NCBI RefSeq assembly: GCF_018617485.1
Contig: NZ_JACSKH010000001.1
Location: forward strand, 310,001-374,000
Length of the DNA stretch: 64,000 nt
Direction: 5' to 3'
Source: Exiguobacterium sp. s124
GTDB taxonomy: Bacteria; Bacillota; Bacilli; Exiguobacteriales; Exiguobacteriaceae
In this document: positions 26,346 to 47,736 of the stretch, piece by piece
Position numbering within the stretch: position 1 is the stretch's first letter
How the letters are laid out: the number at the start of each line of letters is the position of its first letter
Made by a program: the position numbers and the translations under genes
The notes under the pieces: generated by a model
What the model was told of the DNA's origin: nothing
Databases searched by the model: none
Seen by the model: only the letters and a program-made list of their open reading frames with translations

Positions 26346-26360
26346 AAGGAGAATCACGCC

Positions 26361-29241: not shown

Positions 29242-29258
29242 CTTATGGAGAGTGAACA

Positions 29259-30760: not shown

Positions 30761-31844
30761 AAATGTATTAATTTTAGTCAACCATGAAGTTGTTATTTAT
30801 AATTTCCGCAAAGAATTAGTAGATAAATTAATTAAAGAAGGTCATCGTGTCACGATTTCATGTCCTACTGGTTCAAAGTTAGAAGAGTTAGCATCTATGG
30901 GATGTCATATTATTCAACAACCGATTGATCGCCGTAGTATCAATCCAGTAAAAGATGCCAAACTTTTCTTTGATTATCTAAGAACAATGCTAAAAGTTCA
31001 GCCCGACGTTATATTAACATATACGATTAAGCCTAATATTTATGGTGGAATGATTGCCTCCTTACTTAAGATTCCTTTTGTTTCAACAATTACGGGGTTA
31101 GGTTCGGCACTCCATAAAGAATCGTTATCCAAAAAGTTAATGATTAGTTTGTATAAAGTTGCATTGAAAAAAGCATCAACAATCTTTGTTCAAAATAAAA
31201 GTAATCTCATGTTCTTAATTGAGAACGGATTTAATGAAAGCCAGCTTCAGCTCGTATCAGGTTCTGGAGTCAATCTAAAAGAATTTAAGATGCGACCTTA
31301 TCCGAGCCTAGAAGCACCGATCCAAATTTTATTTATTGGACGAGTGATGAAAGAAAAAGGTGTATATGAGTTAATCTCTGCTGCTAAATTACTACAGGAA
31401 AAGGGACATCAAGTTGAGTTTAAGCTTGCTGGATTTTTAGATGATGGTTTTCAAATGAGCGATGAACACGTACCCGGAAATGTGAAACTAGTCGGTGCAA
31501 TCAAAGATGTGAGGGAAAGTATTGAATCTTCACATGCCATTATTCTTCCGTCATATCATGAAGGAATGTCGAATGCATTGCTTGAGGCAGCTGCTACAGG
31601 AAGACCATTGTTGGCTTCTGACATCCCCGGGTGTAATGAAATTATAGATGATGAGCTAAATGGATACGTTTTTGATGTCAAATCGACTGAAAGTATCGTA
31701 GAGAAAACAGAGAAATTTCTCCAACTACCACATGAGCACAAAGTTCTTATGGGACAAGCGTCCCGCAATAAAGTAACGCTTGAATTTGATCGCGAAAAGA
31801 TTGTCGATACATATTACAAGAGAATAATGGAGGTTTCAAAATGA
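30753..31844 (+). CDS. glycosyltransferase family 4 (CapM/PglA-like)
   Basis: 363 residues. N-terminal KNVLILVNHEVVIYNFRKEL and TYTIKPNIYGG are typical of CapM/PglA-type transferases that add the second sugar. The GT4 nucleotide-sugar region includes ILFIGRVMKEKGVYELI and the E-x7-E signature as PSYHEGMSNALLEAAATG. It is cytoplasmic and membrane-associated, and overlaps the upstream gene by eight bases. Confidence 0.87.
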   Translation: MNKNVLILVNHEVVIYNFRKELVDKLIKEGHRVTISCPTGSKLEELASMGCHIIQQPIDRRSINPVKDAKLFFDYLRTMLKVQPDVILTYTIKPNIYGGMIASLLKIPFVSTITGLGSALHKESLSKKLMISLYKVALKKASTIFVQNKSNLMFLIENGFNESQLQLVSGSGVNLKEFKMRPYPSLEAPIQILFIGRVMKEKGVYELISAAKLLQEKGHQVEFKLAGFLDDGFQMSDEHVPGNVKLVGAIKDVRESIESSHAIILPSYHEGMSNALLEAAATGRPLLASDIPGCNEIIDDELNGYVFDVKSTESIVEKTEKFLQLPHEHKVLMGQASRNKVTLEFDREKIVDTYYKRIMEVSK

Positions 31845-33178: not shown

Positions 33179-33189
33179 GGGAGATCATT

Positions 33190-34161
33190 ATGGGATACGA
33201 AAATGTGAAGTTCGAAGAGAATGCGCTGTTTTTAGTGACAGGTGGTGCCGGATTTATCGGCTCCAACCTTTGTGAAGCAATCTTAAATAAAGGATATCGT
33301 GTAAGATGCCTTGATAATTTATCAACTGGAAACCCGAAACATGTTGAGATGTTTTTAGATAATGAGAACTATGAATTTATTGAAGGTGATATAAGAGATT
33401 TAGAAACATGCCTTGATGCTTGCGATGGGGTAGATTATGTACTACATCAAGCTGCTTGGGGTAGTGTACCGAGAAGTATTGAAATGCCTTTATTGTACGA
33501 AGAAATTAACATTAAAGGTACGTTAAACATGTTGGAAGCTGCAAGACAAAATGAGGTAAAGAAATTTGTCTACGCGTCAAGCTCTTCTGTATATGGAGAT
33601 GAGCCAACATTGCCGAAAGTTGAAGGAAGAGAAGGTAAAGTACTATCACCTTACGCATTAACTAAGAAGGTTAATGAAGAATATGCTCGTCTGTATACTC
33701 AATTGTATGGGTTAGACACCTATGGCCTAAGATATTTTAATGTGTTTGGTCCAAGGCAAAACCCTGAGGGGAATTATGCTGCTGTTATACCTAAATTTAT
33801 TAGTAGTTTAATAAATGATATATCTCCGATAATAAATGGAGATGGACTTCAAAGTAGAGATTTTACATACATAGAGAATGTAATAGAAGCTAATTTGAAG
33901 TCATGTGCAAATTCACAAAACGGTAAGAGTGCGGTCTATAATGTTGCTTACGGAGAGAAACACAGTTTACTTGACATTTTAAAGGTAATGTCGCTTTCAT
34001 TAGGAAGAAATGTTGAGCCTATATTTGAAAACTCTCGTTTAGGTGATGTGAAACATAGTTTAGCATGCATTAATAAAGCGAAACAAGAGATTCAATATTC
34101 CCCAGATTGGAGTTTTCAACAAGGGATTGAAAAAACTATTGATTACTTTCGAGGTATTTAA
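33190..34161 (+). CDS. tviC: UDP-GlcNAc(A) 4-epimerase (TviC/WbpP type)
   Basis: 323 residues, ATG after AAGGGAGATC. Extended SDR: TGGAGFIGSNLCEA, AAWGSVPRSI (a signature of the WbpP/TviC group), SSSSVYGDEP and YALTKK (YxxxK). It interconverts gluco and galacto forms of the uronic acid made by the previous enzyme. Adjacent tviB-tviC order matches Vi antigen and related loci. Confidence 0.9.
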   Translation: MGYENVKFEENALFLVTGGAGFIGSNLCEAILNKGYRVRCLDNLSTGNPKHVEMFLDNENYEFIEGDIRDLETCLDACDGVDYVLHQAAWGSVPRSIEMPLLYEEINIKGTLNMLEAARQNEVKKFVYASSSSVYGDEPTLPKVEGREGKVLSPYALTKKVNEEYARLYTQLYGLDTYGLRYFNVFGPRQNPEGNYAAVIPKFISSLINDISPIINGDGLQSRDFTYIENVIEANLKSCANSQNGKSAVYNVAYGEKHSLLDILKVMSLSLGRNVEPIFENSRLGDVKHSLACINKAKQEIQYSPDWSFQQGIEKTIDYFRGI

Positions 34162-34163
34162 TT

Positions 34164-35612
34164 TTGTCAAAATTTAAAGATGGGTTTAAATGGATGTTGT
34201 TATTGTCAACTTTTGCAATTCCAATACAATTTCTAATTTCTGTTGTTATTGGTAGAGTATCAGCAGAAGCGTTAGGCATATATGCTAGTGTTGAATTGAT
34301 ATTAAGCTTGATAGTGATTTTTATTTTTATTGGGGGAGAGTACACATTTATTAAATTTATTCCTAGATTTAAAAGTAAAAAATCATCTATAAATTTTTAT
34401 CTATCATCTCTTGTTGTATTATCTATACTTTATATTTTCATAATTTTATCTTTTGAATACACACGGGTATATTTTGAAGAAGAATTAAAAATAAGTCGTT
34501 TTGAAGCGCTATTTACCTACAAACTCTATTATTTAGGATACCTTTATCTTTTATGGTCAATTTCTGTTGCTTACTTAAAAGGGATGAACTCTTTGAAATA
34601 CGCAACAATATCACAAAAAATGCCAATTGTTATACCGTTAATTTATTTTTCCACTTCGATAATATTTGAATTTAGTTTATCTACGAGATCCCAAGTCATT
34701 TTATCATTCTATTTAATGACTATTGTTGGATTGTCACTTTCGCTTTACTTTATATACAAAGTTAAGAAAAATGATGAGATGATTTCAAATAAAATTAAAG
34801 AATATAAATCTAATAGTTTTAAAGAAATATTCAAATATTCATCTTATATATATTTATCAGGGATTGTTATTTTTATTTACGAAAAATTAGATCAAATAAT
34901 TATTATGGCTAACTTTAATATTGGGATATTAGGCATTTATTTTGCCTGCTATAAAATTTCTCTATTAGCAAAATTTATTCCGAAAACAATGAATCAATCA
35001 CTTTTACCCTCTTTTTCAGAAATGATATCTACAGACGATAAAACTAGCATTGAAAAATACCACAATAAGAACATAAAATTCAACCTAATATTTTCATCTT
35101 TAGTTAGCGGTTTTGTTGTTATATTTTCTGAAAATATTTTATCAGTGTATGGTATTGAATTTGCAGAGTACAGTTGGCTATTAAGTGGACTTATTTGTCT
35201 GTTCTTTTTAGGCGCTCCAGGACAAGTGAACACGAATTTAATTGGTATTATTGGTGACGGGAAAAAAATGTTGACGATAAGTGCTTTTGTTGTAGTTGTC
35301 CAATTATTATCAATGTATTTAGCAATTAGTTATATAGGCTTGTGGTCGATATTACTAGCTCGTTTTTTAGCTGTTGTATTAAATCAAATATTAACAAATT
35401 ACGAATTAAGGAAATTATATAAAGTACACAGGAATGGTATGACTTATTATTTAATAAGCACTCTATTAATAATATTCAGTTTTATAGAACATTCAAGTTT
35501 AATAAGTCAAATAATTCTTCTGTTTATTTATATATTTATAATAACAATAATGTATTTTAATGAACTAACTACCTTAATTAAAAAAATGAAAATCGAGGTA
35601 CTTCAAAAATGA
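34164..35612 (+). CDS. wzx: Wzx-type polysaccharide flippase
   Basis: 482 residues, nearly all hydrophobic, with about 12-14 membrane segments and the MOP/PST layout (RVSAEALGIYASVELILSLIVIFIF at the N-terminus, given by position only). The start is a TTG two bases after the previous stop with a weak ribosome site, suggesting translational coupling. It flips lipid-linked repeat units across the membrane. It is one of the most AT-rich genes here. Confidence 0.85.
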   Translation: MSKFKDGFKWMLLLSTFAIPIQFLISVVIGRVSAEALGIYASVELILSLIVIFIFIGGEYTFIKFIPRFKSKKSSINFYLSSLVVLSILYIFIILSFEYTRVYFEEELKISRFEALFTYKLYYLGYLYLLWSISVAYLKGMNSLKYATISQKMPIVIPLIYFSTSIIFEFSLSTRSQVILSFYLMTIVGLSLSLYFIYKVKKNDEMISNKIKEYKSNSFKEIFKYSSYIYLSGIVIFIYEKLDQIIIMANFNIGILGIYFACYKISLLAKFIPKTMNQSLLPSFSEMISTDDKTSIEKYHNKNIKFNLIFSSLVSGFVVIFSENILSVYGIEFAEYSWLLSGLICLFFLGAPGQVNTNLIGIIGDGKKMLTISAFVVVVQLLSMYLAISYIGLWSILLARFLAVVLNQILTNYELRKLYKVHRNGMTYYLISTLLIIFSFIEHSSLISQIILLFIYIFIITIMYFNELTTLIKKMKIEVLQK

Positions 35613-36145
35613 GAGTAATTGCAAAGTTTTTTTATCAGATGCTATTTGAGTCACTATCTTCTCTCACTAATGTTTTTCCTGATAATGAGATTGGAAATCG
35701 AATTAGAGGGAAAGTGATTGGTCTTTTTTTTAAGAAAAAAGGGGCGAATTTACAAATTTCAAAAAGAACTCATATTTTATATCCTAGAAAAATATCGGTA
35801 GGAAATGATATTTTTATTGGTTATGGTGCATGGATTAACGCACAGGGAGGGATGATACTTGAGGATGAAGTAATGGTGGGACCTCTTACTTGTATTGTTA
35901 CTGGTAATCATACTGCTCAAGGTCAACCTTTATCGTATCGATTTGGTGATCATAAAAAAGAATTAGTCAAAATTGGACATGGCTGTTGGATTGGGAGTCA
36001 CTCGGTTGTATTACCGGGAAGTAACCTTCCTGCAGGTTGTTTAATAGCAGCTGGGGCTGTAGTTACTAAAAAACATAATCTATTAGAAAATCATATCGGC
36101 GGTGGAATACCTTTGTCTAGTATAAGATCTGGAGGAAACAATTGA
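35609..36145 (+). CDS. hexapeptide-repeat acetyltransferase (WcaF/Maa type)
   Basis: 178 residues overlapping the flippase gene by four bases. Left-handed beta-helix repeats include IGYGAWINAQGG, VMVGPLTCIVTGNH, HGCWIGSHSVVLPG and AGAVVTKK. It should O-acetylate a sugar in the polymer with acetyl-CoA. The acceptor is unknown. Confidence 0.85.
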   Translation: MRVIAKFFYQMLFESLSSLTNVFPDNEIGNRIRGKVIGLFFKKKGANLQISKRTHILYPRKISVGNDIFIGYGAWINAQGGMILEDEVMVGPLTCIVTGNHTAQGQPLSYRFGDHKKELVKIGHGCWIGSHSVVLPGSNLPAGCLIAAGAVVTKKHNLLENHIGGGIPLSSIRSGGNN

Positions 36146-37368
36146 TGAAAAAGTTGATAAAAAATAATGTTATAAAGTTTATAAATGCGCCTGAAAAGGA
36201 CATACTTAGCTCGCAAACTTTGTATGAAGCCTTATTAACAGCCTTAGATATGTATGAAAGTTGTACGAATGAAAATGATAAAGTTTTCTGGGAGGACGAA
36301 AGCTTTAAATTAGCGAATCTCATTAAAAATACTCAGTTACCGAATGGAGGATTTGATTTAGGCTATAACTTTCTTTTCGGTAAAGGTCTTGAAAAAACTT
36401 ATAGTAAAGAAGCAACTACACCAGAAGTACTATCAGTGTATGCATTATACCGCTATACAGAGACTTTTGGACTTGAAAAATCTTCATTTATTTCTGCAAG
36501 TATTGAAAATGGAGTAAATTGGATACTGAATAACATTATAGCTATAGACAATTATTATGCGATTCCATATGCCCCTCACACTTATGATAAAGTGCACATT
36601 ACTAATGGTGTTTCATTTGCTATAGGTGCACTTGCTTACTATGTTAAGGATAATAAAAAAGATGAAAGAGCAGTAGAAGTATTTAATGGAATGATAGAGT
36701 TTATGTACGATCAACTTGAGAGCTCTGTGTCTGGAAATGGCTCGTATTGGCCATATTTTTATCAAAATGGCTCCGAGAAAGAAAAAGAGTTGATAAATGA
36801 TAAAGTTGATAATTATCATATAGCACAGCAGTTAAAGTATCATTGTGTCGCGTATAAATTAGTACCAACTGCAAAAAACCTGGAAATAATAAAACTTGTA
36901 AGTGAATACTTATTTTCCAAAATTGATAATAATATGTTTATTCCCTATACAGAAAACGGAAATAAAAAAAGTTCAAAGATAGATATGTGGGGTTATACGT
37001 CAATAATTAAAGCATTTATTGAAGTGAATCATATTTTAAAAGATGAAAAATATATTATCCTTTCTAAAAAAATTGTCAAAAAAGTAATAAATCATTCTTG
37101 GAATGGGGAATATTTCTATCCTATCCTTGATGAAAGATTTAGAGCGTTTGATAAGAATTTTTATCCGAGATCTGATGCTTGGGTGCTCCATTCATTAGCA
37201 CATTATTATAAAAATATTGAAAGAGATGAAGAAATATATAAAGTAATTTTTAAAGGATATACTTCAATTTCAGAAGTAAATTTCATTGGGTATGAGAACC
37301 ATACGCTTTCAAAGAGAAAAAAAGTATTTATTAAACTGTTAAGTGGCATTAAAAGAGGTAAAAAATGA
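36145..37368 (+). CDS. polysaccharide-locus protein with probable alpha/alpha-toroid fold, function unknown
   Basis: 407 residues from the ATG after TGGAGG (overlapping the previous stop as TGATG). No signal peptide or membrane segment. The sequence alternates helices with repeated aromatic/Gly turns (LPNGGFDLGY, TPEVLSVYALYRYTE, NGVSFAIGALAYYV, SGNGSYWPYFYQNG, HSWNGEYFYP, RSDAWVLHSLAHYY), the look of terpene-cyclase, GH88 or C5-epimerase type (alpha/alpha) barrels. It might modify or bind the lipid-linked sugar. I can assign no reaction. Confidence 0.55.
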   Translation: MKKLIKNNVIKFINAPEKDILSSQTLYEALLTALDMYESCTNENDKVFWEDESFKLANLIKNTQLPNGGFDLGYNFLFGKGLEKTYSKEATTPEVLSVYALYRYTETFGLEKSSFISASIENGVNWILNNIIAIDNYYAIPYAPHTYDKVHITNGVSFAIGALAYYVKDNKKDERAVEVFNGMIEFMYDQLESSVSGNGSYWPYFYQNGSEKEKELINDKVDNYHIAQQLKYHCVAYKLVPTAKNLEIIKLVSEYLFSKIDNNMFIPYTENGNKKSSKIDMWGYTSIIKAFIEVNHILKDEKYIILSKKIVKKVINHSWNGEYFYPILDERFRAFDKNFYPRSDAWVLHSLAHYYKNIERDEEIYKVIFKGYTSISEVNFIGYENHTLSKRKKVFIKLLSGIKRGKK

Positions 37369-38579
37369 AAATATCACTTATGACTCTTAATTATTTGCCG
37401 AATAAAGGTGGCTTAGTAAGTTATGTACAAAATGTATCTAAAGAAATAACTAAATCAAGCCATTCCGCAGTTGTTCATACTACTGATGGGAAGAATAGAG
37501 AGTTACCTGAATTAGAACGCATTGACGGTATTCAAGTTTACAGACATAGAGCGTTAAGTATGAAAGGGATTTTAAAATTATTTACTCCCTTTATTGTTCC
37601 TTTAAAACTATATAGCAGATTTAAATTAAATTTAGAAAAAGACGAATACGTAATTATTAGACATTTGTATTTTGCCATGGCATTAAGTCTTTTCAAAAAA
37701 AGAGATAATTTTATTTATATTATTCCTTTAATTGCTCCGCGTCTGCAAAGGATGAATATTAAACAAGTAAATACTTTCAAAAAAATATATTATTATTTTT
37801 TAATCCCTCAACTCTATCTAATCGAAAAATTTGCCTTAAATCGAATAAAAAATATAGCGACATTAAGTGATACAAAAAAAGAAGAGATTGTGGAATTTTA
37901 CAATATTTCTTCTAATAGGGTGCATGTAATTCCTCCAGGTGTAGACTTAGAGAAGTTTAAGCCATTAGTTAGTCAGGATGAAAAAGAAATGATCCTAAAA
38001 AATGAGGGATTAGAAATACTTAAGGAATTTAAAATTATTCTTACGGTTTGTAGATTATCTAATGAAAAAAATGTCACTTATGCTATCGATATGATTAGTC
38101 ATATGGGAGAAGGTTTCAAGTTAGTCATTGTGGGAGACGGTGAAGAATCTTCGAAGTTAAAAAAATATGTCATTGATAAAGAACTGGATGACAAAGTGAT
38201 TTTTGTTGGTTTCAAGTCAAATACTGAAGATTTCTACAGAATTGCTGATGTATTTATTTTACCAAGCAAATATGAAGGCTTTGGTCATGTATATTTAGAA
38301 GCTATGGCGTCGGGAATTCCTTGCATAGGACTTCAACATAATCCTCCTAATATTATCACAGCAACTCAAGAAATCATTAAACAGAATCAAACTGGTTTCA
38401 TTGATAAAGGTGAAAATTCCGAAGAATTAGCTAATAAACTAATTAGTTGGTTTCAAAATCCTCTTTTAGTCCAAGAGTATAGAAAAAATTGCAGAACATA
38501 TGTGGAAGAGAATCATTCTTGGAATACACATTTGACTTCTATTATTTCTTTATGGGAAATGAATGAAAGAGGAGATTAA
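37365..38579 (+). CDS. glycosyltransferase family 4
   Basis: 404 residues. N-terminal LNYLPNKGGLVSYVQNVSKEI is the acceptor Gly-rich loop; VIPPGVDLEKFKP, ILTVCRLSNEKNV and LPSKYEGFGHVYLEAMASGIPCIG give the GT4 donor region with its E-x7-E. It probably adds a sugar to the repeat unit in the cytoplasm. The gene overlaps the preceding stop codon. Confidence 0.87.
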   Translation: MKISLMTLNYLPNKGGLVSYVQNVSKEITKSSHSAVVHTTDGKNRELPELERIDGIQVYRHRALSMKGILKLFTPFIVPLKLYSRFKLNLEKDEYVIIRHLYFAMALSLFKKRDNFIYIIPLIAPRLQRMNIKQVNTFKKIYYYFLIPQLYLIEKFALNRIKNIATLSDTKKEEIVEFYNISSNRVHVIPPGVDLEKFKPLVSQDEKEMILKNEGLEILKEFKIILTVCRLSNEKNVTYAIDMISHMGEGFKLVIVGDGEESSKLKKYVIDKELDDKVIFVGFKSNTEDFYRIADVFILPSKYEGFGHVYLEAMASGIPCIGLQHNPPNIITATQEIIKQNQTGFIDKGENSEELANKLISWFQNPLLVQEYRKNCRTYVEENHSWNTHLTSIISLWEMNERGD

Positions 38580-38584
38580 ATAAT

Positions 38585-39847
38585 ATGTATGTTGAAGAAA
38601 GTTCAAAAAAAACTAATGATGTTATAATATTTAGCTTAATGTTACTTGTAATTTGGAAACCTACACCCACGATTTTATTGGGTGAAAGCTTAGGTTATAA
38701 ATTTGGCGATATTCTTTTGTTGATTACTATTATTAGCATTCTAGTACGAATAAAAAACATTATTAATCCTATGAATTTGAATTATATCTTTCTAGTATTT
38801 TTTATTTTTGTAGAGATTGTCTCGCTGTTTTTTTCTTCTTTAAGATTACCTGTAATACTTGATGATCTTTTTGAGTTATTTAGACCGGTGTTATATTTAC
38901 TTATTTATCTCACGGTATATTCTCTAGTTAACAACAGTATATTTTACAAAGATAGTATACGTAGAGTGTATATAGCACTTTTTATTTTTTTTGTGATAAG
39001 TGTATTTCAATTGTTCAATTTTTTGGGGACAAAAAATATCATGAGTTTCTTTTATGAAGTTAGTAAATCACGCACTTTTGATACAAGCGAATCCATTTGG
39101 CGACTTGCTAGTACTTTTACTAACCCAAACTACTTTTCATTTTTTCTTGCTATAACCTTAAGCTTTTTTTTTAGTGGAATACTAGTTTCGGAAAATATAA
39201 AGGAAAAGGTATGGAACTTAATCTTTTCTATCGTTGTTTTGTCTTTAGTACTTTTTACAGGTTCAAGAACAGGATTAGTTGCCTCGATAATTTCTGTACT
39301 AGGGATTTATTTTGTATACACTTTTAAAACATATAGAAAATCAACTCTATACAAATTTATATCAATCATTACATTTTTCTTACTTATGATTTTTATTACA
39401 TTTTATAGTCAAGACTTTTTGAATAGATTCGAAAGGTTTTCAGATGTGGAAAATATTAAATTTAATTTATATGTTAGATATGAAATTTGGTTTGAGGCGT
39501 TAGATAAGTGGAAACAAAGCCCTTTAATAGGAAATGGACCATATAAGTATTACATGGACACATTTGATAGTAACTATGTTTTAATGTTATACAGATATGG
39601 ATTGATAGGGTTAACATTATTTATATTATTATTCTTTTTTAATATTTTAAAATCTATCAAAAACGCGCACACTAAATTTTCTTTAGGGATGGTTGGTGTA
39701 AATATAGTTTTCATGATTTCGATGATTTCGGCAATTTCTTTCAACTTTATCCAATTGGGAGCTATCTATATTGGTTTAGTGGCTGTACAAGACAAGATAA
39801 TTTATTTAAATGAAAGAGGTAAGAATAATATTGAATATAAAAATTAG
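38585..39847 (+). CDS. wzy: Wzy-type polysaccharide polymerase (O-antigen ligase-like)
   Basis: 420 residues, about eleven membrane segments and a large loop near residues 275-330 with RYEIWFEALDKWKQSPLIGNGP, typical of the Wzy_C/O-antigen ligase fold. SFTNPNYFSFFLAIT and FTGSRTGLVASIIS are also family-like. It joins repeat units at the outer membrane face. It is placed with wzx in the locus, and sequence divergence is expected for this family. Confidence 0.82.
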   Translation: MYVEESSKKTNDVIIFSLMLLVIWKPTPTILLGESLGYKFGDILLLITIISILVRIKNIINPMNLNYIFLVFFIFVEIVSLFFSSLRLPVILDDLFELFRPVLYLLIYLTVYSLVNNSIFYKDSIRRVYIALFIFFVISVFQLFNFLGTKNIMSFFYEVSKSRTFDTSESIWRLASTFTNPNYFSFFLAITLSFFFSGILVSENIKEKVWNLIFSIVVLSLVLFTGSRTGLVASIISVLGIYFVYTFKTYRKSTLYKFISIITFFLLMIFITFYSQDFLNRFERFSDVENIKFNLYVRYEIWFEALDKWKQSPLIGNGPYKYYMDTFDSNYVLMLYRYGLIGLTLFILLFFFNILKSIKNAHTKFSLGMVGVNIVFMISMISAISFNFIQLGAIYIGLVAVQDKIIYLNERGKNNIEYKN

Positions 39848-40817
39848 TGTTGTGATAATCGGGAAAAATGAAGAAGACAATATTTTAAGAAATATAAATT
39901 CAATTAAAAATACAGTAGAATATAAAAAATCCGAAACCGAAATTTTGTATATTGACAGTGGATCTGAAGACAATACGATTTTTAATATAACATCTAATCA
40001 TAATGATATTAAAGTCTATAGAATTGAAGATGATGAAGTTAAAACAGCCTCAAAAGGTAGACACTTAGGAGCTCTATTATGCAAAGGTGAGTATATACTA
40101 TTTTTAGATGCTGACATGGAATTACACAATTTGTTTATAAGTCGAATTTTAGATGTTTCAAAAACGGATCCAGGTTTTATAGGAGGTATTGGAATTCGAA
40201 ATGATATATTTTTAAATAACGGTATAGAGGTATATAGAAAACAAAATGTTTATAATACTCTCAGTGAAAAAAAATGTAATCATTTCGGAGGAGCCCTCTT
40301 TATAAAAAGAGAATTTTTGATTGGAATAGGTAATTATGGTAGTTCTATAGTTGCAAATGAGGAAGCTGAATTAGATAGCAGGATAATACAAAAAGGTAAG
40401 TTTATTAAAGAATATCCCTTTCAAATGATTAATCACTACATCCGTATTGAAGATGATAAAAAAAGTTTGAAAAATATATTGTTTGGAAAGAGAAATCAAG
40501 GGATTGGACAGGGTTTCAGACATTCATTCTATTTCAAATCTACTTTTAGTTTCATCAAAAGATTCAATCTATTTTTCATAGCTTTTTTTGGTGATTTAAT
40601 TTCTCTTACTTTGGTTTTGGCTTCTGTAATAAATTATTCATTGTTTTTCATTGCTATACTAATTCAAATATCTTTGAGCATATTTTATATGAAAAACAGA
40701 AAATTGAAATTTTTTGTACTACATAAAATATACGCTCTTCATTTTTTCAAAGGAGTACTTAATTATAAATTGGGTAACAAAATTAACTTTGTGAGAATTG
40801 ACAACTATAAATATTAA
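39831..40817 (+). CDS. glycosyltransferase family 2
   Basis: I prefer the TTG about ten bases after AAAGAGG; an ATG at 39810 has no separate site. 328 residues, with a GT-A domain (ISVVIIGKNEEDNILRNINSI, EILYIDSGSEDNT, FLDADMELHN) and two hydrophobic C-terminal segments (about 245-285). It overlaps wzy by 17 bases. It adds a sugar to the lipid-linked unit. It is the last gene of the locus. Confidence 0.82.
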   Translation: MNIKISVVIIGKNEEDNILRNINSIKNTVEYKKSETEILYIDSGSEDNTIFNITSNHNDIKVYRIEDDEVKTASKGRHLGALLCKGEYILFLDADMELHNLFISRILDVSKTDPGFIGGIGIRNDIFLNNGIEVYRKQNVYNTLSEKKCNHFGGALFIKREFLIGIGNYGSSIVANEEAELDSRIIQKGKFIKEYPFQMINHYIRIEDDKKSLKNILFGKRNQGIGQGFRHSFYFKSTFSFIKRFNLFFIAFFGDLISLTLVLASVINYSLFFIAILIQISLSIFYMKNRKLKFFVLHKIYALHFFKGVLNYKLGNKINFVRIDNYKY

Positions 40818-41294
40818 TAATTATGTATAGTGCAAAATAGTAGTGGTTCTTACAAAAAAATGGTGAGCGATAAGAGCGATTGTCTAAAGTTGCTCGCTCA
40901 TTTTTGCAATATCAATGAACAGGGCTCAGTGTAGACATTAAGTTTTTTTACAATTTTTAGGCTTTTGCCTTTATACGCTTCTGCCGAAACAATGTTTTTC
41001 TGCTTTTCATTACTACACACGAGTGGTTTTGCGATGTACAAGATGGAAATCCTAAGCTCTAAGTAGCTCTCTATTTTCATACGTTCGAACAAGGTAGGTA
41101 AGATGGTTGTATTTCAAAGTGATATCTTTCGTTAGAGTGTTTGTGTAGTAACTTCATTCTACGTGAGGGTGTCACTATATTTTTTTACATTCACGTTCTG
41201 GTGTTGTAATTAATTTCATAATTTATCGCTTCTAAAAAATGAAATATTAGTTACAAACGATTAAACTATGAATCTATTTTCCGATATATAGAAT
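40818..41294. other. intergenic region between exopolysaccharide and lasso-peptide loci
   Basis: About 480 bases, AT-rich, with no supported gene. At 40864-40905 a TGAGCGA/TCGCTCA stem with a 23-base loop and T run may terminate the exopolysaccharide operon. A 64-codon reading frame on the minus strand (40898-41092) has no ribosome site and matches nothing I know. The promoter of the lasso cluster must lie toward the right end, but no clear -35/-10 is visible. Confidence 0.5.
40864..40905 (+). terminator. possible terminator of the exopolysaccharide operon
   Basis: TGAGCGA / TCGCTCA arms, long loop and five T residues. Confidence 0.5.
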
Positions 41295-42416
41295 ATGAAA
41301 ACAACTCACATTAATTCAAAAAATAGTATACATGAGCGAACTATATCTAAATTTTTATTTACTTTAACAAAATCGACATATTCATATAATCATACGGATG
41401 GAGAATCGTTTATAGATAGCATCATGTTTCATCGAATTTATCCAAGCTCGTTAGAACTTTCATATCTGAGACAAATTCAAATTAAAAATAACATGCAAAT
41501 GCTACAGACGAAGCGGCAATTATGTCTTATTGCTCAACTATTTGAGCAAGAGAACATTCCAATGATCTGTCTGAAAGGTCCAGTCATCTTATCAAAAGCA
41601 TATGATGCTAACGTTGGAAGAATTATGCGTGATCTCGATTTACTTGTGTCTCCGAAACATATCGAAGAATCTGCTAATCTTCTTCAAAGTCTCGGTTATG
41701 TCACGACAGACGATTTAACTGATTTTAACTATCGACAAAAAAATCATCATTATATCTTCACTCATCAAGAGTCAAATCATATCGTAGAACTCCATTGGCG
41801 ACTTTTTCCGAGTATTGTCGAAGAGCCTGATTTTTCACTGCTGTGGAAATCGCGTGATTCGATTGAGATTGCTGAACAAAAGATCAATTGTTTAAATGAC
41901 GAACTCCTTTTCACTTATTTAATCGTACATGGCTCAAAACATGGCTGGTTTAGATTGAAATGGTTATTTGATATTCATCAATTTTTACAACAACCTTTGA
42001 ACTGGAAGCGCGTTGCCTATATCACTGATCAATGGAAAATTCAGCACATGATGGGACAAGCTATGATTCTCATCGAAACTCTGTTTGAACAAGATGCACC
42101 TGAACCGTTGAAACGATATATGAACTCGAAAAAAGCTCGAAAGATGGCTCAGATTGCTTTAGTAATGGTGGGTGAGAAAATGAATCCAGAAGAGGCTAAT
42201 CGACAGTTTTCGCATTATCTGTTTTGGAAACGGTACTTTTTCTTGATTCGACCACGCAGTCAGCGTGTATCTTACATACTTCATCACTTTATCCCTACAC
42301 AACAAGATCGAGATATACTGACCATTCCGAACCGACTTCAATTTTTGTATATACCGTTGCGACCTGTAACATTTCTAATGAGACGTCGTGTAGCTAAGAG
42401 AGGAAATCAATCATGA
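41295..42416 (+). CDS. lasso-peptide-associated nucleotidyltransferase family protein (NTP_transf_5)
   Basis: 373 residues with the NTP_transf_5 pattern: IPMICLKGPVI, GRIMRDLDLLVSPKHIEES (with the DLD metal-binding pair), HHYIFTHQESNHIVELHWRLFP. No good ribosome site precedes the ATG, so the start could be later. It overlaps the cyclase gene by four bases (ATGA). In Firmicutes lasso clusters such as pseudomycoidin, such proteins are reported to modify the phosphorylated C-terminus of the peptide. The same role is inferred here because a matching kinase gene is present. Confidence 0.8.
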   Translation: MKTTHINSKNSIHERTISKFLFTLTKSTYSYNHTDGESFIDSIMFHRIYPSSLELSYLRQIQIKNNMQMLQTKRQLCLIAQLFEQENIPMICLKGPVILSKAYDANVGRIMRDLDLLVSPKHIEESANLLQSLGYVTTDDLTDFNYRQKNHHYIFTHQESNHIVELHWRLFPSIVEEPDFSLLWKSRDSIEIAEQKINCLNDELLFTYLIVHGSKHGWFRLKWLFDIHQFLQQPLNWKRVAYITDQWKIQHMMGQAMILIETLFEQDAPEPLKRYMNSKKARKMAQIALVMVGEKMNPEEANRQFSHYLFWKRYFFLIRPRSQRVSYILHHFIPTQQDRDILTIPNRLQFLYIPLRPVTFLMRRRVAKRGNQS

Positions 42417-44257
42417 GTGCAATCTTTGGCATGTTGGGTTCTACCTCTGCCTCAAATGGAGTAAGGGCTCTCCGATCATCTTTTACCACAAAATATGAAT
42501 GTGATCGATCTGCGATTTGGTTCAATGAAACATGTGGACTAGGGACACTCGAACAATGGATCAATAAGGAGGAAGAACACTCGCCACAACCTTTTCGGTT
42601 AGATTCGCTCATCATCGTTTTTGATGGAATGTTAGACTACCGAGACGATTTAAAAGAAAAGTTAAATGTAGGATTTCAAGAGAAGTCTACGGATGCCGAA
42701 CTCGTTGCGAAATCTTTCATGAAGTGGGGAATCGAATGCGTTGAGCACTTGATGGGTATCTTTGCGTTTGCTGTGTATGACGAATCGATAAACGAGATGT
42801 GGATTGTTCGAGACCGGCTAGGGGAACGAGCAGTCTGTTACACCCATCGGGAAGATGGACTGATGTTTAGTACCACGCCTAAACCGATTGCCACTTACTA
42901 CGATTACGACATCAATGAAACATTTTTAAAGCAGTATGCCGTTTCACCGATGCAGTTAAAGACACATGATCCTTACATAGCGCCTTGGGAAAAGATTCAA
43001 TACGTACCTCCTGGTCATGTTTTGCATTATCAACAGGGGAATGTGACTTTGAAAGAATATTGGGCGTATCAATCACAACCAGAACGAACTTTTCGTTCAG
43101 AAGAAGAGTGCCATGAGGAACTTGATAAAATTCTAGAAGAGGCAACTCGTACTTGTACCCGAACAGATGGAGAAGTTGGTTTGATGTTGAGTGGTGGACT
43201 CGACTCGACGACAGTTGCTGCTTATGCTGCACCGCTCTTGCAACGTGAAGATAAATCTCTGCATGCGTATACGCACGTTCCTCTCTCAGAGTATGAGGAT
43301 TCTGCAGAGATACTCGGAAATGAACGGCCGCTCGTCGAAGAAGTGTTGAAGTATTACCCTTCGATTAAACCAAACTGGATTGAAAACCGAGAGCGAAACG
43401 CTTATAACACGATGGATGACTGGTTAGAAATTTTGGAGATGCCTTATGGATTCTTCATAAATGCTCCATGGTTACTCAGCATCCATGAAACTGCTAAGAA
43501 TCAAGATGTGCGAGTCATGTTGAATGGGAAACATGGCAATTGTACGATTTCATATGGTTCAATTGGAGTTTATTACTCAGAGTTATTTAGAAGCGCCCAA
43601 TTCTCAGAGATGATAAAAGAATTTTATGCATTGCTGAATAATGGTATGAGTGTCTATACTGCTTCAAAAAAAATATTTGGATCCGTTATATTAAGTTATA
43701 AAATTTCGCATAAAAGTGAACGATTGTTAAAAAAGCATATAAGCAAATTTCTGTCGATTGATCTTCGAAACAAGATAACATATAGGCATTTGAATCTCAA
43801 TGAACATAATGTGAAAGAACGCTTAAGTGACTCGTATGAGAGAGATCATTTTCATTTTCATGGTGTATTTTCGACAATGTGTTCTCTGCGTTTTAATTGT
43901 GTTGTACGCGATCCATTGTCCAGTATTCAGTTAATTGATTTTTGTTCTAGTCTCTCTTCTGATTACTTTGCTTCAAAAGGAGTCTCAAAAAAGTTAGTGC
44001 GGTCATTAATGAAAAATCGTTTACCTCTTAAAGTACTAGATATGAATCGTCCTAGAGGTCGACAATCCGCAGATTGGAATTTTCGTTTGATCAATAGTCA
44101 GAATAGTATTATGAATGATTTACAAATAACAAAATCCAATCTGATTTCAATAGAATCTCTAGATAAGTTGTGGAACAGTTTGAGTAAAGACATATGGACA
44201 ATGAACTTCATGTTTCGAAGAATTATTATTCATAAATTCAAAGGAGGTGAGAGTTAA
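42413..44257 (+). CDS. lasC: lasso peptide macrolactam synthetase (asparagine synthetase homolog)
   Basis: 614 residues. The N-terminal glutaminase-like domain starts MSAIFGML, where catalytic Cys2 of true asparagine synthetase is Ser, as usual in lasso cyclases. The C-terminal ATP-pyrophosphatase domain has LMLSGGLDSTTVAAY (PP-loop near residue 259). It adenylates the ring Asp/Glu side chain and closes the isopeptide bond with the core N-terminus. The gene overlaps both neighbours: ATGA with the nucleotidyltransferase gene and TAATG with the precursor gene. Confidence 0.92.
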   Translation: MSAIFGMLGSTSASNGVRALRSSFTTKYECDRSAIWFNETCGLGTLEQWINKEEEHSPQPFRLDSLIIVFDGMLDYRDDLKEKLNVGFQEKSTDAELVAKSFMKWGIECVEHLMGIFAFAVYDESINEMWIVRDRLGERAVCYTHREDGLMFSTTPKPIATYYDYDINETFLKQYAVSPMQLKTHDPYIAPWEKIQYVPPGHVLHYQQGNVTLKEYWAYQSQPERTFRSEEECHEELDKILEEATRTCTRTDGEVGLMLSGGLDSTTVAAYAAPLLQREDKSLHAYTHVPLSEYEDSAEILGNERPLVEEVLKYYPSIKPNWIENRERNAYNTMDDWLEILEMPYGFFINAPWLLSIHETAKNQDVRVMLNGKHGNCTISYGSIGVYYSELFRSAQFSEMIKEFYALLNNGMSVYTASKKIFGSVILSYKISHKSERLLKKHISKFLSIDLRNKITYRHLNLNEHNVKERLSDSYERDHFHFHGVFSTMCSLRFNCVVRDPLSSIQLIDFCSSLSSDYFASKGVSKKLVRSLMKNRLPLKVLDMNRPRGRQSADWNFRLINSQNSIMNDLQITKSNLISIESLDKLWNSLSKDIWTMNFMFRRIIIHKFKGGES

Positions 44258-44361
44258 TGAAATTAGAATGGAATGAACCAGTTCTAGAAGAACTAGATGT
44301 GAAAGAAACGGCAGAGAGTGGTATCCCAGGTGGTTCAGACTTGTTTGCAGAAACATCATAA
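44257..44361 (+). CDS. lasA: lasso peptide precursor (short ORF)
   Basis: A 34-codon gene with a strong AAGGAGGTGA site (44241-44250), its ATG overlapping the cyclase stop codon. The leader has the B1-recognition residues Trp5, Pro8 and Leu10 (replacing YxxPxL) and Thr18. Taking this Thr as the conserved -2 residue, cleavage after Ala19 leaves the 15-residue core ESGIPGGSDLFAETS. Asp9 would then close a nine-member ring with the N-terminal amine, and Ser15 is the phospho-acceptor. Glu at position 1 is unusual. Starting at Ser2 (eight-member ring to the same Asp) or Gly3 (seven-member ring) would also be chemically possible. Phe11 or Leu10 could plug the ring. The assignment as precursor is firm from place and pattern. 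The exact core is inferred. Confidence 0.88.
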   Translation: MKLEWNEPVLEELDVKETAESGIPGGSDLFAETS

Positions 44362-44378
44362 TTTAACAGTAAGAAGTT

Positions 44379-44402
44379 GCCTTCCCACATTCGTGAGAAG
44401 GC
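44379..44402 (+). terminator. hairpin after the precursor gene (probable attenuator)
   Basis: GCCTTC / GAAGGC arms with an inner CAC/GTG pair, followed by a mixed TCCTTTATT tract rather than a full T run. It would favour a high level of precursor message while allowing some read-through to the exporter and maturation genes. Confidence 0.6.
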
Positions 44403-44431
44403 TCCTTTATTAATGGAAAGCGAGTCAATTC

Positions 44432-46156
44432 ATGAACTTATCCCAAATGATTCATGACGTGAAAACGTTCATTCAATATATGTATCAAGCGTTTCGAAGT
44501 GATGTGTGGCAAGTCATCGTATTGAGTAGCTTCAATGCGCTGTTGACTGGGGCGGGAATATTGATGATTCTGCCCCTCTTATCTTTAACGAGTCTGCCCC
44601 TTCCGAATCAAACAAAGGTATGGATGACCTTTCCAAGCGATTGGTCGTTCTCTAGACAGCTTGCGGTCGTCCTCGTCTTATATTTTGTACTGATTTGTAT
44701 GAGTGTCTGGGTGAACCGAAAGGCGACGTTAGCAAGTGTCTCGCTCTTACAACGCGCTGTCCAGACATTACGAGGTGATTTATTCACGAGTCTTTTCTCG
44801 GCTGAAACCTCAGATGTTGTGCAAACTTCACAAAGTCGATATATCAGCCTATTTACTGTTGAAATTAACCGAATTAGTTTAGGTATCCAAGGGATGATTC
44901 AACTCATGACACTAATCCTTGTGGCGATACCGCAACTGTTGATTGCGTTCTATTTGTCTCCTATGCTCACGATGTACGTGTGGATTGGTGGCGCACTATT
45001 GTTCGTCGGGTTTTATCAATCGATGAAACATGTCAGGCAACTTGGAATCTCATTGCAACATCTCAATCGTGACTTGCAACAAGCAGTTCAGGATCAATTG
45101 AATGGGATGAAAGAAATCAGGTCGTACGGGGCAGAACAGAGACATATCTCAGACTTTCAGGAGACGACCGAAGACATTCGACAAAACATTACAGCATTCA
45201 CGGTCCAACAGACGAAAGTCGATAGTGCCTTTAAAATCGGGGCGGCGCTTCTCATTAGTCTCTTCCTCGGTTTTGGTCTATTGGCATTCAGTCAAGATAT
45301 CGCATCTTTACTTGTGATTCTCTTGATTTTTAGTCGACTTTGGCCGTCATTTTCCAATGCGCAGCGACATCTTCAATCTATTTTGTCGGCGTTACCGAGC
45401 TTTGAGGCGTATCATCAAGCGCTTGCTCAGTTACAACAAAGCGACTCGAAGCATTCAGTTGAACCGATTTCATTTGCGCGCGAACTACGCTTTGAAAACG
45501 TGTCGTTCCAGTATCCGGAGCACCGTGGATTCTCGCTTCAACACATTGATATTACGATTCAAGCAGGGACGACCGTAGCACTGACAGGACACTCAGGTTC
45601 AGGGAAAAGTACTTGTCTTGATTTATTGCTAGGGTTTCATCAACCGACGAGTGGTCGTCTGTTGATTGATGACCGCGTGCTATCCTCTGTTGATCAAACT
45701 GCATGGTTCGAGCTGATTGCGTACATCCCTCAACACCCTTATTTGTTTGATGGGACCATTGAGGAGAATCTTCGAAAGTGGCATCCAAATCTGACAGATG
45801 AAGCACTGCACGAGGTCATTGACATGGCAGAGGCTACCTTTGTCTATAATCTACCGAATGGTTTGCAGACGAGAATCGGTGACTTCGGTCACTCTTTGTC
45901 TGGTGGAGAACGTCAGCGCATTGTGCTTGCACGAGCTTTGGCCAAGCGTCCAAAACTGTTGATTTTGGATGAGGCGACAGGGGCTGTCGATGAAGCTCAA
46001 GAAATGAATATTTATCAGACGTTGCATCGTCTGAAACACGAGATGACAATCATCTACATCACGCATCGAAAAGAAGTTTCGCAGTTAGCCGATCAAATGA
46101 TTTATTTAGAACAAGGAAAGATTGTGAAGCGGGGTGATTTATATGCACCATTATGA
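44432..46156 (+). CDS. lasD: lasso peptide ABC exporter (fused membrane and ATPase domains)
   Basis: 574 residues: six membrane helices (about 20-310) and a C-terminal ATPase with Walker A GHSGSGKST, signature LSGGERQR and Walker B LLILDEA. It resembles CydC/lasso D-type half-transporters that act as homodimers. It exports the mature peptide and gives self-immunity in known systems. Its 3' end overlaps the start of the kinase gene. Confidence 0.92.
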   Translation: MNLSQMIHDVKTFIQYMYQAFRSDVWQVIVLSSFNALLTGAGILMILPLLSLTSLPLPNQTKVWMTFPSDWSFSRQLAVVLVLYFVLICMSVWVNRKATLASVSLLQRAVQTLRGDLFTSLFSAETSDVVQTSQSRYISLFTVEINRISLGIQGMIQLMTLILVAIPQLLIAFYLSPMLTMYVWIGGALLFVGFYQSMKHVRQLGISLQHLNRDLQQAVQDQLNGMKEIRSYGAEQRHISDFQETTEDIRQNITAFTVQQTKVDSAFKIGAALLISLFLGFGLLAFSQDIASLLVILLIFSRLWPSFSNAQRHLQSILSALPSFEAYHQALAQLQQSDSKHSVEPISFARELRFENVSFQYPEHRGFSLQHIDITIQAGTTVALTGHSGSGKSTCLDLLLGFHQPTSGRLLIDDRVLSSVDQTAWFELIAYIPQHPYLFDGTIEENLRKWHPNLTDEALHEVIDMAEATFVYNLPNGLQTRIGDFGHSLSGGERQRIVLARALAKRPKLLILDEATGAVDEAQEMNIYQTLHRLKHEMTIIYITHRKEVSQLADQMIYLEQGKIVKRGDLYAPL

Positions 46157-47039
46157 AGTGTTCGGGTTACAGGTATCGTCGGAGATTGAATTGGATGAAG
46201 TCCCCATTGGTGTCGGAGGGGACGTCTGGATTCGAAAAGGCGAAGTCCATCGTCCGAATCAAGCAACATTTGAAAATGATGTATATGCGATCGAGGAACA
46301 ACTATTCTATTTACATATCCCTGAAGTGGGAAGATTTCAAGTTGAAAACGGGCAAACGATTACGGTTGATCCCTATCCTGACGCGACGACAGAACAATTG
46401 AAGCTTTATCTACTCGGCTCATGCTTAGGTTGTCTACTCCACCAACGTCAAGTAGTCCCGCTCCATGGGAGTGTACTCGATATTGAAGGGCACGGGCTTC
46501 TTATTACGGGTCAATCAGGGGCGGGTAAATCTACGATCGCCAATGCGATGATCGATAGAGGGTATCCTTTCGTGACGGACGATGTCGCTGCTATCGCGTT
46601 CAAAGAAGATGTCCCATACGTGCATCTAGCGTACCCATCTCAAAAGCTATGGGAGGATGTCGTGACACGCTGGGAAATTGAAACAACGAGGGGAGTCACA
46701 CGTCAAGTCGAAGGACGTACCAAATTCTCGGTCGTTCGACAACAAGCATTCGCAAAAGAGATGGTTCCACTTCAGTTTATTTTTGAAGTGAGTCCGGTTC
46801 AAGATTTAACCGATGTACAGATGTGTCACGTTACAGGGATCGAGAAAATTAAAACGTTGCTGACGCATACCTATCGAAACAAGCTGCTTGTGCACCTTCG
46901 CCCGCATGAATCGTACTTACAACAGATTATGCGTATCGCAAGTCATATCCATGTATTTCGAATCGAGAGACCAATCGGTATACCGTTAGAACAGCAAATT
47001 TGTGACATGATGTTAGAACAACTACATGTAAAGGTGTGA
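46143..47039 (+). CDS. lasK: lasso peptide C-terminal serine kinase (HPr kinase-like)
   Basis: 298 residues from the ATG after GCGGGGTGA (a GTG at 46134 is also in frame). The HPr kinase-like P-loop reads GQSGAGKST near residue 122 and the preceding strand has PLHGSVLDI. In paeninodin-type clusters such kinases phosphorylate the side chain of the C-terminal Ser of the precursor. The precursor here does end in Ser, which fits. The N-terminal half has no match I can name. Confidence 0.87.
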   Translation: MHHYEVFGLQVSSEIELDEVPIGVGGDVWIRKGEVHRPNQATFENDVYAIEEQLFYLHIPEVGRFQVENGQTITVDPYPDATTEQLKLYLLGSCLGCLLHQRQVVPLHGSVLDIEGHGLLITGQSGAGKSTIANAMIDRGYPFVTDDVAAIAFKEDVPYVHLAYPSQKLWEDVVTRWEIETTRGVTRQVEGRTKFSVVRQQAFAKEMVPLQFIFEVSPVQDLTDVQMCHVTGIEKIKTLLTHTYRNKLLVHLRPHESYLQQIMRIASHIHVFRIERPIGIPLEQQICDMMLEQLHVKV

Positions 47040-47047
47040 ATGATACG

Positions 47048-47326
47048 ATGACAATCAATGAATCGACAACAGTAAAACAAAATCCAAATATGTTAACGAC
47101 ACCGATGGACGGTGAAATCGTGATGATGAGTATCAAACATGGCAAGTATTATAGTATTGGAAAAACGGGGGTCGCCATTTGGGAAGAGGTTGGAGAAGGA
47201 CGTACCGTTCAGGAGATTGTGAGTCGTTTATGCGAGCGTTATGAAGTGGATGCTGATGTGTGTAAGCGAGATGTGATTGCATTTGTTGAACAAATGGCCT
47301 CGAAAGAAATCGTTTTGGTGCGATGA
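47048..47326 (+). CDS. lasB1: PqqD-like lasso leader-recognition protein (B1)
   Basis: 92 residues. I take the ATG after AAAGGTG; a GTG at 47036 overlapping the kinase stop is possible. The PqqD/RRE winged helix pattern is clear: NMLTTPMDGEIVMMSI, YYSIGKTGVAIWEEVGEGRTVQEIV, YEVDADVCKRDVIAFVEQM. It binds the precursor leader and presents it to the B2 protease and the cyclase. It overlaps the protease gene by four bases. Confidence 0.9.
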   Translation: MTINESTTVKQNPNMLTTPMDGEIVMMSIKHGKYYSIGKTGVAIWEEVGEGRTVQEIVSRLCERYEVDADVCKRDVIAFVEQMASKEIVLVR

Positions 47327-47736
47327 AACCGAGGCGTAGTGTACAGGAATACGTTTTAGCCTTCGAGGCGTTTTGTCTTCTAGGGATTGCACGTGCGTGC
47401 ATCTTATTCCTTCCGTTTCCTTTTGTTTCAAATGGATTAGGTACAGACAACCCCATTCAGATACGAGAGAAAAATGAGCATCGTATGTTAAATGTCAAAT
47501 TGGCGATCGCAAGAGCCAGTCGTCACACTCCGTGGACGAGTAATTGCTTGGCACAGTCGTTGACTGCTGCTTGGATGCTTGGAAGGCGACAGATTTCTTC
47601 GAGTACGTATTTAGGTGTGAAACGAGATGACAATGGATCTATGATTGCTCATTCGTGGACCGTTTCGGGAGAACAATTCATTACAGGCAAAAAAGGGCAT
47701 GAATCTTTCCATGTGACCCAAACGTTTTATAGATGA
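47323..47736 (+). CDS. lasB2: transglutaminase-like lasso leader peptidase (B2)
   Basis: 137 residues. The catalytic Cys lies in HTPWTSNCLAQSL (about residue 75) and the catalytic His in AHSW (about 110), the Cys-His arrangement of lasso B2 proteases. It cleaves the leader after the residue following the conserved Thr, using ATP-independent cysteine protease chemistry with B1. It is the last gene of the cluster and is followed by a strong terminator. Confidence 0.9.
   Translation: MKPRRSVQEYVLAFEAFCLLGIARACILFLPFPFVSNGLGTDNPIQIREKNEHRMLNVKLAIARASRHTPWTSNCLAQSLTAAWMLGRRQISSSTYLGVKRDDNGSMIAHSWTVSGEQFITGKKGHESFHVTQTFYR

What the first reader, a model, noticed from the sequence alone, without database searches (positions are those of the whole stretch)
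41295..47736. Complete lasso-peptide cluster with both a C-terminal kinase and a nucleotidyltransferase
Gene order is nucleotidyltransferase, cyclase, precursor, exporter, HPr-kinase-like, B1, B2, with overlapping starts and stops except after the precursor. This matches paeninodin and pseudomycoidin type clusters, in which the kinase phosphorylates the terminal Ser and the nucleotidyltransferase is reported to add a sugar. The core has no match I can recall, so the product is probably new.
Basis: partly seen in the sequence, partly recalled or inferred. Interest (0 to 1): 0.82.

Follow-up and report, generated by a model that had tools for sequence, protein, structure and literature searches.

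The report
Short-core lasso peptide cluster, Exiguobacterium
A bacterium of the genus Exiguobacterium carries, inside its sugar-coat gene region, a complete set of genes for making a very short, knotted or looped peptide whose last residue is probably phosphorylated and then joined to a sugar; the kind is known, but this is an unusually short and differently arranged form.

Summary
In detail: window 41295-47736 is an intact seven-gene operon, nucleotidyltransferase (N), cyclase (C), precursor (A), ABC exporter (D), HprK-like kinase (K), B1, B2. The precursor just passes NCBI's paeninodin-family model (28.2 bits, cut-off 27). It has the WxxPxL leader, Thr(-2), acceptor Asp9 and C-terminal Ser. 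So this is a paeninodin-family cluster in an Exiguobacterium, related to pseudomycoidin by its nucleotidyltransferase. The family is known and common, and its frequent location in polysaccharide loci is published (PMC13381572).

What is new is the variant. The gene order N-C-A-D-K-B1-B2 occurs in 2 of 83 loci, both Exiguobacterium. The predicted 15-residue core ESGIPGGSDLFAETS is the only one of 99 distinct cores starting with Glu; 99 of 99 end in Ser. Its kinase falls in a supported clade of five whose cores are all 14-17 residues; the other genes do not clearly show that clade. A stem-loop after the precursor is kept in E. algae. The cluster lies at the variable end of an exopolysaccharide locus.

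Phosphorylation and glycosylation are inferred by homology. Threading, product and role are untested.

The parts
41295..42416 (+). N: NTP_transf_5 nucleotidyltransferase (PsmN-like), 373 aa; D113, D115, E165 invariant in 42 of 42 aligned homologues
   Evidence: AlphaFold model pLDDT 88.9 with nucleotidyltransferase fold
42413..44257 (+). C: lasso-type macrolactam cyclase (asparagine-synthetase-like), 614 aa, with the motif LSGGLDST
44257..44361 (+). A: precursor, 34 aa; leader MKLEWNEPVLEELDVKETA, predicted core ESGIPGGSDLFAETS (E1, D9, C-terminal S)
   Evidence: alignment with E. algae precursor
44379..44402 (+). stem-loop (GCCTTC-C-CAC-ATTC-GTG-A-GAAGGC) in the gap between A and D; a similar one in E. 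algae
   Evidence: z -2.96 and -3.93; spacer sequences; position
44432..46156 (+). D: ABC exporter, 574 aa
46143..47039 (+). K: HprK-like kinase, 298 aa; H108, K129, D146, D147 present
47048..47326 (+). B1: discrete RRE / PqqD-like leader-binding protein (GTG start at 47036 also possible)
   Evidence: best solved relative 9x90
47323..47736 (+). B2: leader peptidase, transglutaminase-like, 137 aa; C75, D102, H110 conserved in 5 of 5 aligned
41278..41288 (+). TTTCCGATATA just before the N start; TTCCGATATA stands at the same distance (6 nt) from the start in E. algae; candidate promoter or regulatory element
24734..40817 (+). exopolysaccharide locus (Wzz-, CpsD-, CapD-, UGDH-, Wzx-, Wzy-like and glycosyltransferase genes) whose downstream end holds the cluster; context, not part of the operon. 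These gene names are my own reading of the ORFs, used as labels; they were not run against a family library

Best explanation
A paeninodin-family lasso-peptide operon of a short-core type. B1 binds the WNEPVL motif of the leader; K phosphorylates the hydroxyl of the C-terminal Ser15 of the precursor, perhaps more than once; B1 and B2 cut the leader after the residue that follows the conserved Thr(-2); C activates the side chain of Asp9 and joins it to the amino group of Glu1, giving a nine-residue ring with a six-residue tail (LFAETS); N modifies the phosphorylated serine, most likely ending in a sugar linked through phosphate; D exports the product. The stem-loop after A probably raises precursor transcript over the downstream genes. 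The product is probably used at the cell surface together with the polysaccharide made by the adjoining locus. Shown here: genes, motifs, conserved operon, kinase clade, location. Inferred from characterised relatives: each enzymatic step and the cut site. Guessed: threading with so short a tail, the stem-loop's effect, the polysaccharide connection and the role.
For: Family models for A, B1 and B2 above cut-off; WxxP leader, Thr two residues before the predicted core, Asp9 and terminal Ser as in the relatives, where 99 of 99 distinct cores end in Ser and 84 of 99 have an acid at position 9 (the four rows dropped there also end in Ser). Kinase keeps the His-Lys-Asp-Asp residues reported as essential (passages of PMC9266682). 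B1's best solved relative is 9x90, which PMC13381572 names as PbaB1 bound to a WxxP leader. B2 Cys, Asp and His conserved in 5 of 5. Only one PqqD domain was found in the whole genome, so B1 serves this cluster. Operon kept in E. algae with a precursor of the same design.
Against: Glu at core position 1 was seen in no other of 99 cores and in no passage read; residues seen experimentally were Gly, Cys, Ser, Ala, and lately Asn (passages of PMC12670498). So the cut could lie one residue later (Ser1, ring of 8). A six-residue tail is short for a stable threaded lasso, so the product could be an unthreaded lariat. The precursor passes NF033524 by about one bit, and in the whole-genome scan only with neighbouring residues counted. 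The cyclase is below the NCBI cut-off (but so are all six tested). I made no test of expression and have no mass data.
Confidence: 0.8

Rival explanations
1. Same cluster, but the leader is cut one residue later (Thr at -3), giving core SGIPGGSDLFAETS with Ser1, an eight-residue ring closed at Asp8 and a six-residue tail.
For: Ser is an experimentally known first residue whereas Glu was not among those named in the passages read. In relatives 10 of 99 cores have no acid at positions 6-9 but one at 10 if Thr(-2) is assumed, which would fit a cut shifted by one in some members.
Against: The distance from the leader Trp to Thr is 13 residues in 98 of the 99 distinct cores, the window and E. algae included (14 in L027), and 84 of 99 have an acid at position 9 by Thr(-2); in E. 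algae the shift would give a seven-residue ring.
Confidence: 0.2
2. The product is a branched cyclic (unthreaded) phosphopeptide, not a lasso: the tail is too short to be held in the ring.
For: Tail of six residues after the predicted acceptor in the window, E. algae and L027 (cores). No call tests threading.
Against: Phe11 in the window and Phe12 in E. algae could serve as plugs (inference); 14-residue xanthomonin-size lassos are known (recalled; only the title of a paper on a seven-residue ring was seen, in a reference list).
Confidence: 0.3
3. The cluster is decaying or silent in this genome.
For: Divergence from E. algae is much higher (51-70% identity) than that of the genes on the downstream flank (80-97% for seven genes from the ROK-like to the alpha-galactosidase-like gene, 87% for the sigma-like gene); no expression data.
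Against: All seven frames are open with kept catalytic residues, kept stem-loop and kept precursor design.
Confidence: 0.07
4. N is a LicD/FKRP-like phosphotransferase: it transfers hexose-1-phosphate from an NDP-hexose to the peptide, rather than a glycosyl group or a nucleotide.
For: The AlphaFold model of N is a nucleotidyltransferase fold, with weak matches to FKRP, a nucleotidyltransferase-fold enzyme that transfers ribitol phosphate from CDP-ribitol (activity recalled; Foldseek E 0.007; VIA Z 6.8).
Against: Better matches are to ANT(2")-Ia, LnuA and MenT enzymes, which transfer nucleotides (activities recalled or from the entry titles); Z under 8 may be only a common arrangement.
Confidence: 0.25

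Closest known systems
Paeninodin cluster (Paenibacillus dendritiformis; known to me from reviews, original paper not held)
   Same: Precursor model, split B1/B2, HprK-like kinase acting on a C-terminal Ser, lasso cyclase
   Different: Core of 15 residues; the 95 cores outside the short-core clade have 20-49; Glu first; a nucleotidyltransferase in the operon; exporter between A and K. Paeninodin's own genes were not compared here
Pseudomycoidin cluster (Bacillus pseudomycoides; passages of reviews PMC9266682 and PMC8498205; original not held)
   Same: Has both a kinase (PsmK) and an annotated nucleotidyltransferase (PsmN)
   Different: PsmN and the pseudomycoidin precursor were not compared here; one review places the nucleotidyltransferase gene of such Firmicute clusters between B2 and D, whereas here it is first
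P. alginolyticus pba and lpp clusters (PMC13381572)
   Same: pba is paeninodin-like with a WxxP leader, beside polysaccharide genes; lpp shares kinase, NTP transferase, exporter and RRE
   Different: No second PqqD/RRE domain and no SipW-like peptidase over cut-off in this genome, so no sign of an LPP system
Exiguobacterium algae S126 cluster (L026/L006)
   Same: Same seven genes, order and chromosomal site; A-D stem-loop
   Different: 51-70% protein identity; core AAGMFTMDATDFSS, ring of 8 by Thr(-2)

Membership tests
Paeninodin family lasso peptide (NF033524) | precursor over curated score | tested here: met
   28.2 bits, cut-off 27; marginal. E. algae 27.1; the three other short-core precursors 11.9-15.3, below it
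Paeninodin family lasso peptide (NF033524) | WxxPx[L/V] leader motif | tested here: met
   WNEPVL; same motif in the relatives (whose search required it)
Paeninodin family lasso peptide (NF033524) | Thr(-2) and acidic acceptor at 7-9 | tested here: met
   KETA|ESGIPGGSD: Asp9; the cut site itself not tested
Paeninodin family lasso peptide (NF033524) | kinase with His-Lys-Asp-Asp and C-terminal Ser substrate | tested here: met
   Ser15; 99 of 99 distinct cores end in Ser. Phosphorylation itself not tested
Paeninodin family lasso peptide (NF033524) | split B1 (RRE) and B2 (peptidase) | tested here: met
   NF033536 and NF033537 over cut-off
Lasso peptide cyclase (NF033535) | score over curated cut-off of 525 | tested here: not met
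   217 bits; but 6 of 6 paeninodin-type cyclases scanned fail too (217-389 bits), one of them annotated as lasso cyclase, so the cut-off does not decide
Lasso peptide | threaded ring-and-tail product | not testable with these tools
   needs the peptide
Pseudomycoidin-type (phosphoglycosylated) | PF14907 nucleotidyltransferase in the cluster | tested here: met
   162.7 bits, cut-off 31.2. That PsmN belongs to PF14907 is assumed, not tested
Pseudomycoidin-type (phosphoglycosylated) | hexose on the phosphoserine | not testable with these tools
   needs mass spectrometry
Linear polyphosphorylated peptide (LPP) | YxxP precursor, SipW-like peptidase, own RRE | tested here: not met
   leader is WxxP; one PqqD domain only; signal peptidase hit 30.6 bits against cut-off 51.85
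Nucleotidyltransferase fold | metal-binding carboxylates and fold | tested here: met
   D113, D115, E165 in 42 of 42; MenT1 Z 13.1, ANT(2")-Ia Z 11.5, LnuA Z 10.2. That these three residues are the metal ligands is inferred from the DxD pattern, not measured on the model

The most novel reading that the evidence does not exclude
The polyphosphorylated C-terminal serine is a stand-in for a nucleoside triphosphate. The kinase builds seryl-di- or triphosphate on the peptide; the nucleotidyltransferase, whose fold and carboxylates are those of enzymes that act on NTP-Mg, then uses the peptide as donor and transfers peptidyl-seryl-phosphate to a sugar hydroxyl, releasing pyrophosphate. The natural acceptor would be the exopolysaccharide made by the adjoining locus, so that short lasso or lariat peptides decorate the capsule. 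This would explain why such kinases add several phosphates and why PsmN gave one or two hexoses in E. coli (a free sugar or a disaccharide as acceptor; both results as told in a review), why removal of lppN changed nothing in the foreign host, and why such clusters often sit in capsule loci.
Probability: 0.13. Interest if true: 0.85.

Novelty: new variant of a known kind. Interest (0 to 1): 0.42.

Why it matters
The biological role of paeninodins is stated to be unknown and their link with capsule loci untested (PMC13381572, discussion read). A 15-residue member with one copy of every part, no second RRE found in the genome, and a sister species with a related but different core is a small, tractable system for asking three open things: what the NTP_transf_5 enzyme does to the phosphoserine, whether so short a tail is threaded, and whether the peptide ends up on the polysaccharide. 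In the short-core kinase clade three of five precursors score below the NCBI model, so annotation by that model would miss them.

Tried and rejected
Gene order as evidence for pseudomycoidin type: rejected, order differs from that of 81 of 83 loci. LPP system in the same genome: looked for with PqqD and SipW-like models, nothing over cut-off beyond the cluster's own B1. XerC-like recombinase (47804-48721) as a part of the cluster: rejected; a match at E 1e-40 occurs in 13 of 19 genus genomes, while the cyclase is in 2 of 19 and the kinase in 2 of 38 of the order. Close plasmid relatives: only distant kinase matches, 12 records, all under 60% identity. Sequence search of N (profile of three) against solved structures: no match up to E 1; the fold search answered instead. 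B2 against solved structures: one match, a hemagglutinin by weak scattered pieces, taken as chance. Short-core clade for other genes: not shown. Outside E. algae the window's cyclase scores best with ordinary paeninodin cyclases (L030, L039 and others), B1 and B2 likewise with mixed loci; N has L029 next, D has L029, L154, L027 next. So the clade claim rests on the kinase alone. The first tree warned that long branches meet at the window pair, and its careful search did not finish, so the quick tree was used; the second is also a quick one. In one search the short label was also on second, very divergent kinases of L027 and L029, which lie elsewhere. A 14-residue core outside the clade exists (L154), so short cores arose more than once. 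Polysaccharide-gene count near the kinase: 42 of 80 loci have at least one homologue of the window's 14-protein set within the fetched flanks, 38 none; no control was run, so only the published statement is relied on. The promoter scan gave fewer sites than shuffles (12 against 19.2) and the terminator scan 8 against 4.6 (sd 2.4), without the A-D stem-loop; neither was used.
Full report
What was checked. Pfam names all but the precursor, and NCBIfam names the precursor, B1 and B2 over cut-off; the precursor of 34 residues is an NF033524 (paeninodin family) member by about one bit. The coordinates 41295-47736 are right. The kinase start at 46143 overlaps the exporter's end; B1 may begin at 47036 (GTG) or 47048 (ATG).

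Which organism. The window lies in a 2.8 Mb genome. The nearest cluster, in the same genus, is on a contig that the named collection calls Exiguobacterium algae S126. The cyclase is found in 2 of 19 genomes of the genus and the kinase in 2 of 38 of the order, both times the window's genome and E. algae.

The precursor. Leader MKLEWNEPVLEELDVKETA carries WxxPxL. Taking Thr at -2, as in the relatives, the core is ESGIPGGSDLFAETS. E. algae has AAGMFTMDATDFSS after the same kind of leader. From 80 kinase loci of named genomes (the best 80 of 334 confirmed stretches), two plasmid loci and the window, a pattern search found 106 precursor rows; four were dropped because no cyclase or kinase label lay within 2.6 kb (all four end in Ser), and three were duplicates, leaving 99 distinct cores. 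Of these 99, all end in Ser; first residues are Ala 38, Gly 18, Asn 17, Leu 11, Gln 4, Tyr 4, His 3, and one each of Glu (the window), Met, Ser, Thr; 84 have an acid at position 9. The pattern required the WxxP motif and a following Thr, so it cannot show precursors that lack these. In five of the 80 loci (L028, L064, L076, L080, L085) it kept none on the + strand; in L028 and L064 one stands on the other strand.

Core length and clade. Cores of the window, E. algae, Thermoclostridium L027, Metabacillus L029 and Lachnoclostridium L028 have 15, 14, 14, 17 and 17 residues; the other 95 of the 99 have 20 to 49 (L028 is not among the 99). In a quick maximum-likelihood tree of 89 kinases these five lie together with SH-aLRT 100 (with a long-branch warning), and with 99 in a second quick tree of 37 kinases (28 chosen by me from the first 89, plus nine new ones, mostly clostridial). 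One more short core (14, L154) is elsewhere in the tree. The tree is for the kinase only; by score, the cyclase, B1 and B2 of the window do not point to the same loci. Three of the five precursors score below the NCBI model.

Enzymes. The kinase keeps H108, K129, D146 and D147, the residues that a review reports as imperative in the lasso kinases (passages of PMC9266682). B1's closest solved relative is 9x90, which PMC13381572 describes as PbaB1 with a WxxP leader (results parts 1-3 and discussion read; results part 4 not read). B2 keeps C75, D102 and H110 in five of five. In N, D113, D115 and E165 are invariant in the 42 sequences given to the alignment, out of 61 that passed my filter. Its AlphaFold model (mean pLDDT 88.9) matches nucleotidyltransferases: MenT1 Z 13.1, ANT(2")-Ia Z 11.5, LnuA Z 10.2; FKRP is found weakly (E 0.007; Z 6.8). 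The part of N beyond residue 275 is hardly covered by these matches.

Operon and location. The only gap, between A and D, folds better than all 200 shuffles in the window (z -2.96) and in E. algae (z -3.93). Next to the N start, TTCCGATATA is shared by both species; it occurs twice in the window (0.21 expected), and the longer form TTTCCGATATANAR once in the genome. The cluster lies between the exopolysaccharide genes and a set with XerC-like, sigma-like, ROK-like and galactosidase-like genes (XerC-like and sigma-like by Pfam, the others by my reading). In two genomes of the genus without the cluster (regions L161-L163 of G001 and G007), the same XerC/sigma/ROK set stands 4-5 kb from the nearest gene that matches the window's polysaccharide set, and no ORF of those regions matches the lasso genes; what lies in the 4-5 kb was not identified. 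Against E. algae, seven genes from the ROK-like to the alpha-galactosidase-like one are 80-97% identical and the sigma-like gene 87%, whereas the lasso genes are 51-70% and the XerC-like gene 42%. So the cluster behaves as a part of the variable cassette of the polysaccharide locus. GC of the polysaccharide stretch 29259-40817 is 31.5%, of the cyclase's second half 31.8% against 43.3% for its first part; in E. algae 41.2% and 47.6%.

What is known. PMC13381572 gives paeninodins in 344 of 9173 Bacilli genomes, often with capsule loci, role unknown. Reviews PMC9266682 and PMC8498205 (passages) describe PsmK and PsmN. PMC12670498 (passages) names Gly, Cys, Ser, Ala as examples of observed first residues and reports Asn as a first; PMC7549694 (passages) gives Gly 62%, Ala 16% and Leu 7% at the first core position. 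A search for Exiguobacterium with lasso peptide found 10 papers, nine listed, none about an Exiguobacterium lasso cluster by title or start of abstract; bodies were not read. That is the basis for saying that I found no description of it; journals outside the library were not searched.

Judgement. The finding is real and correctly read in kind. It is a short-core, differently ordered variant of a known family, of moderate interest. The most novel reading, that polyphosphoserine acts as an NTP mimic for N and that the peptide is joined to polysaccharide, is not excluded by anything seen here, but nothing here tests it.

Noticed in passing
L042, L049, L060, L062, L065, L078, L079, L087, L092, L099 (precursors): 10 of 99 distinct paeninodin-type cores have no acidic residue at positions 6-9 and the first one beyond that at position 10 when Thr(-2) is assumed (for instance ASTVWGPYTD, ADPRNGNHLD). 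Either the leader is cut one residue later or natural ten-residue rings exist; the review passage read mentions a ten-residue ring as an analogue made in vitro, and one library search found no other paper.
   Followed up: partly
L027 5851-6771, L029 7216-8133: Second, very divergent HprK-like kinase beside the main one, with a sulfotransferase-like gene next to it, in two members of the short-core clade (the sulfotransferase reading is mine, not searched).
   Followed up: no
L028 7365-7496: Precursor encoded on the opposite strand to the other cluster genes in a Lachnoclostridium MAG.
   Followed up: no
window 43541-44254: Second part of the cyclase gene is 31.8% GC against 43.3% for the first, and protein identity to E. 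algae drops to 25% in one 60-residue block; possible exchange of the substrate-facing part together with the core.
   Followed up: partly
window 41279-41288: TTCCGATATA six bases before the start codon of the first gene, shared with E. algae; I see no clear Shine-Dalgarno sequence there.
   Followed up: partly
window 47804-49180: XerC-like recombinase and a sigma-70-region-2 protein at the border of the variable polysaccharide region; the recombinase is widespread in the genus and may mark the border.
   Followed up: partly
L043, L044, L066, L084: Additional WxxP precursors ending in Ser far from any cyclase or kinase label, e.g. KFWPPRDPDPDNPGEPGEEPGSGLES.
   Followed up: no
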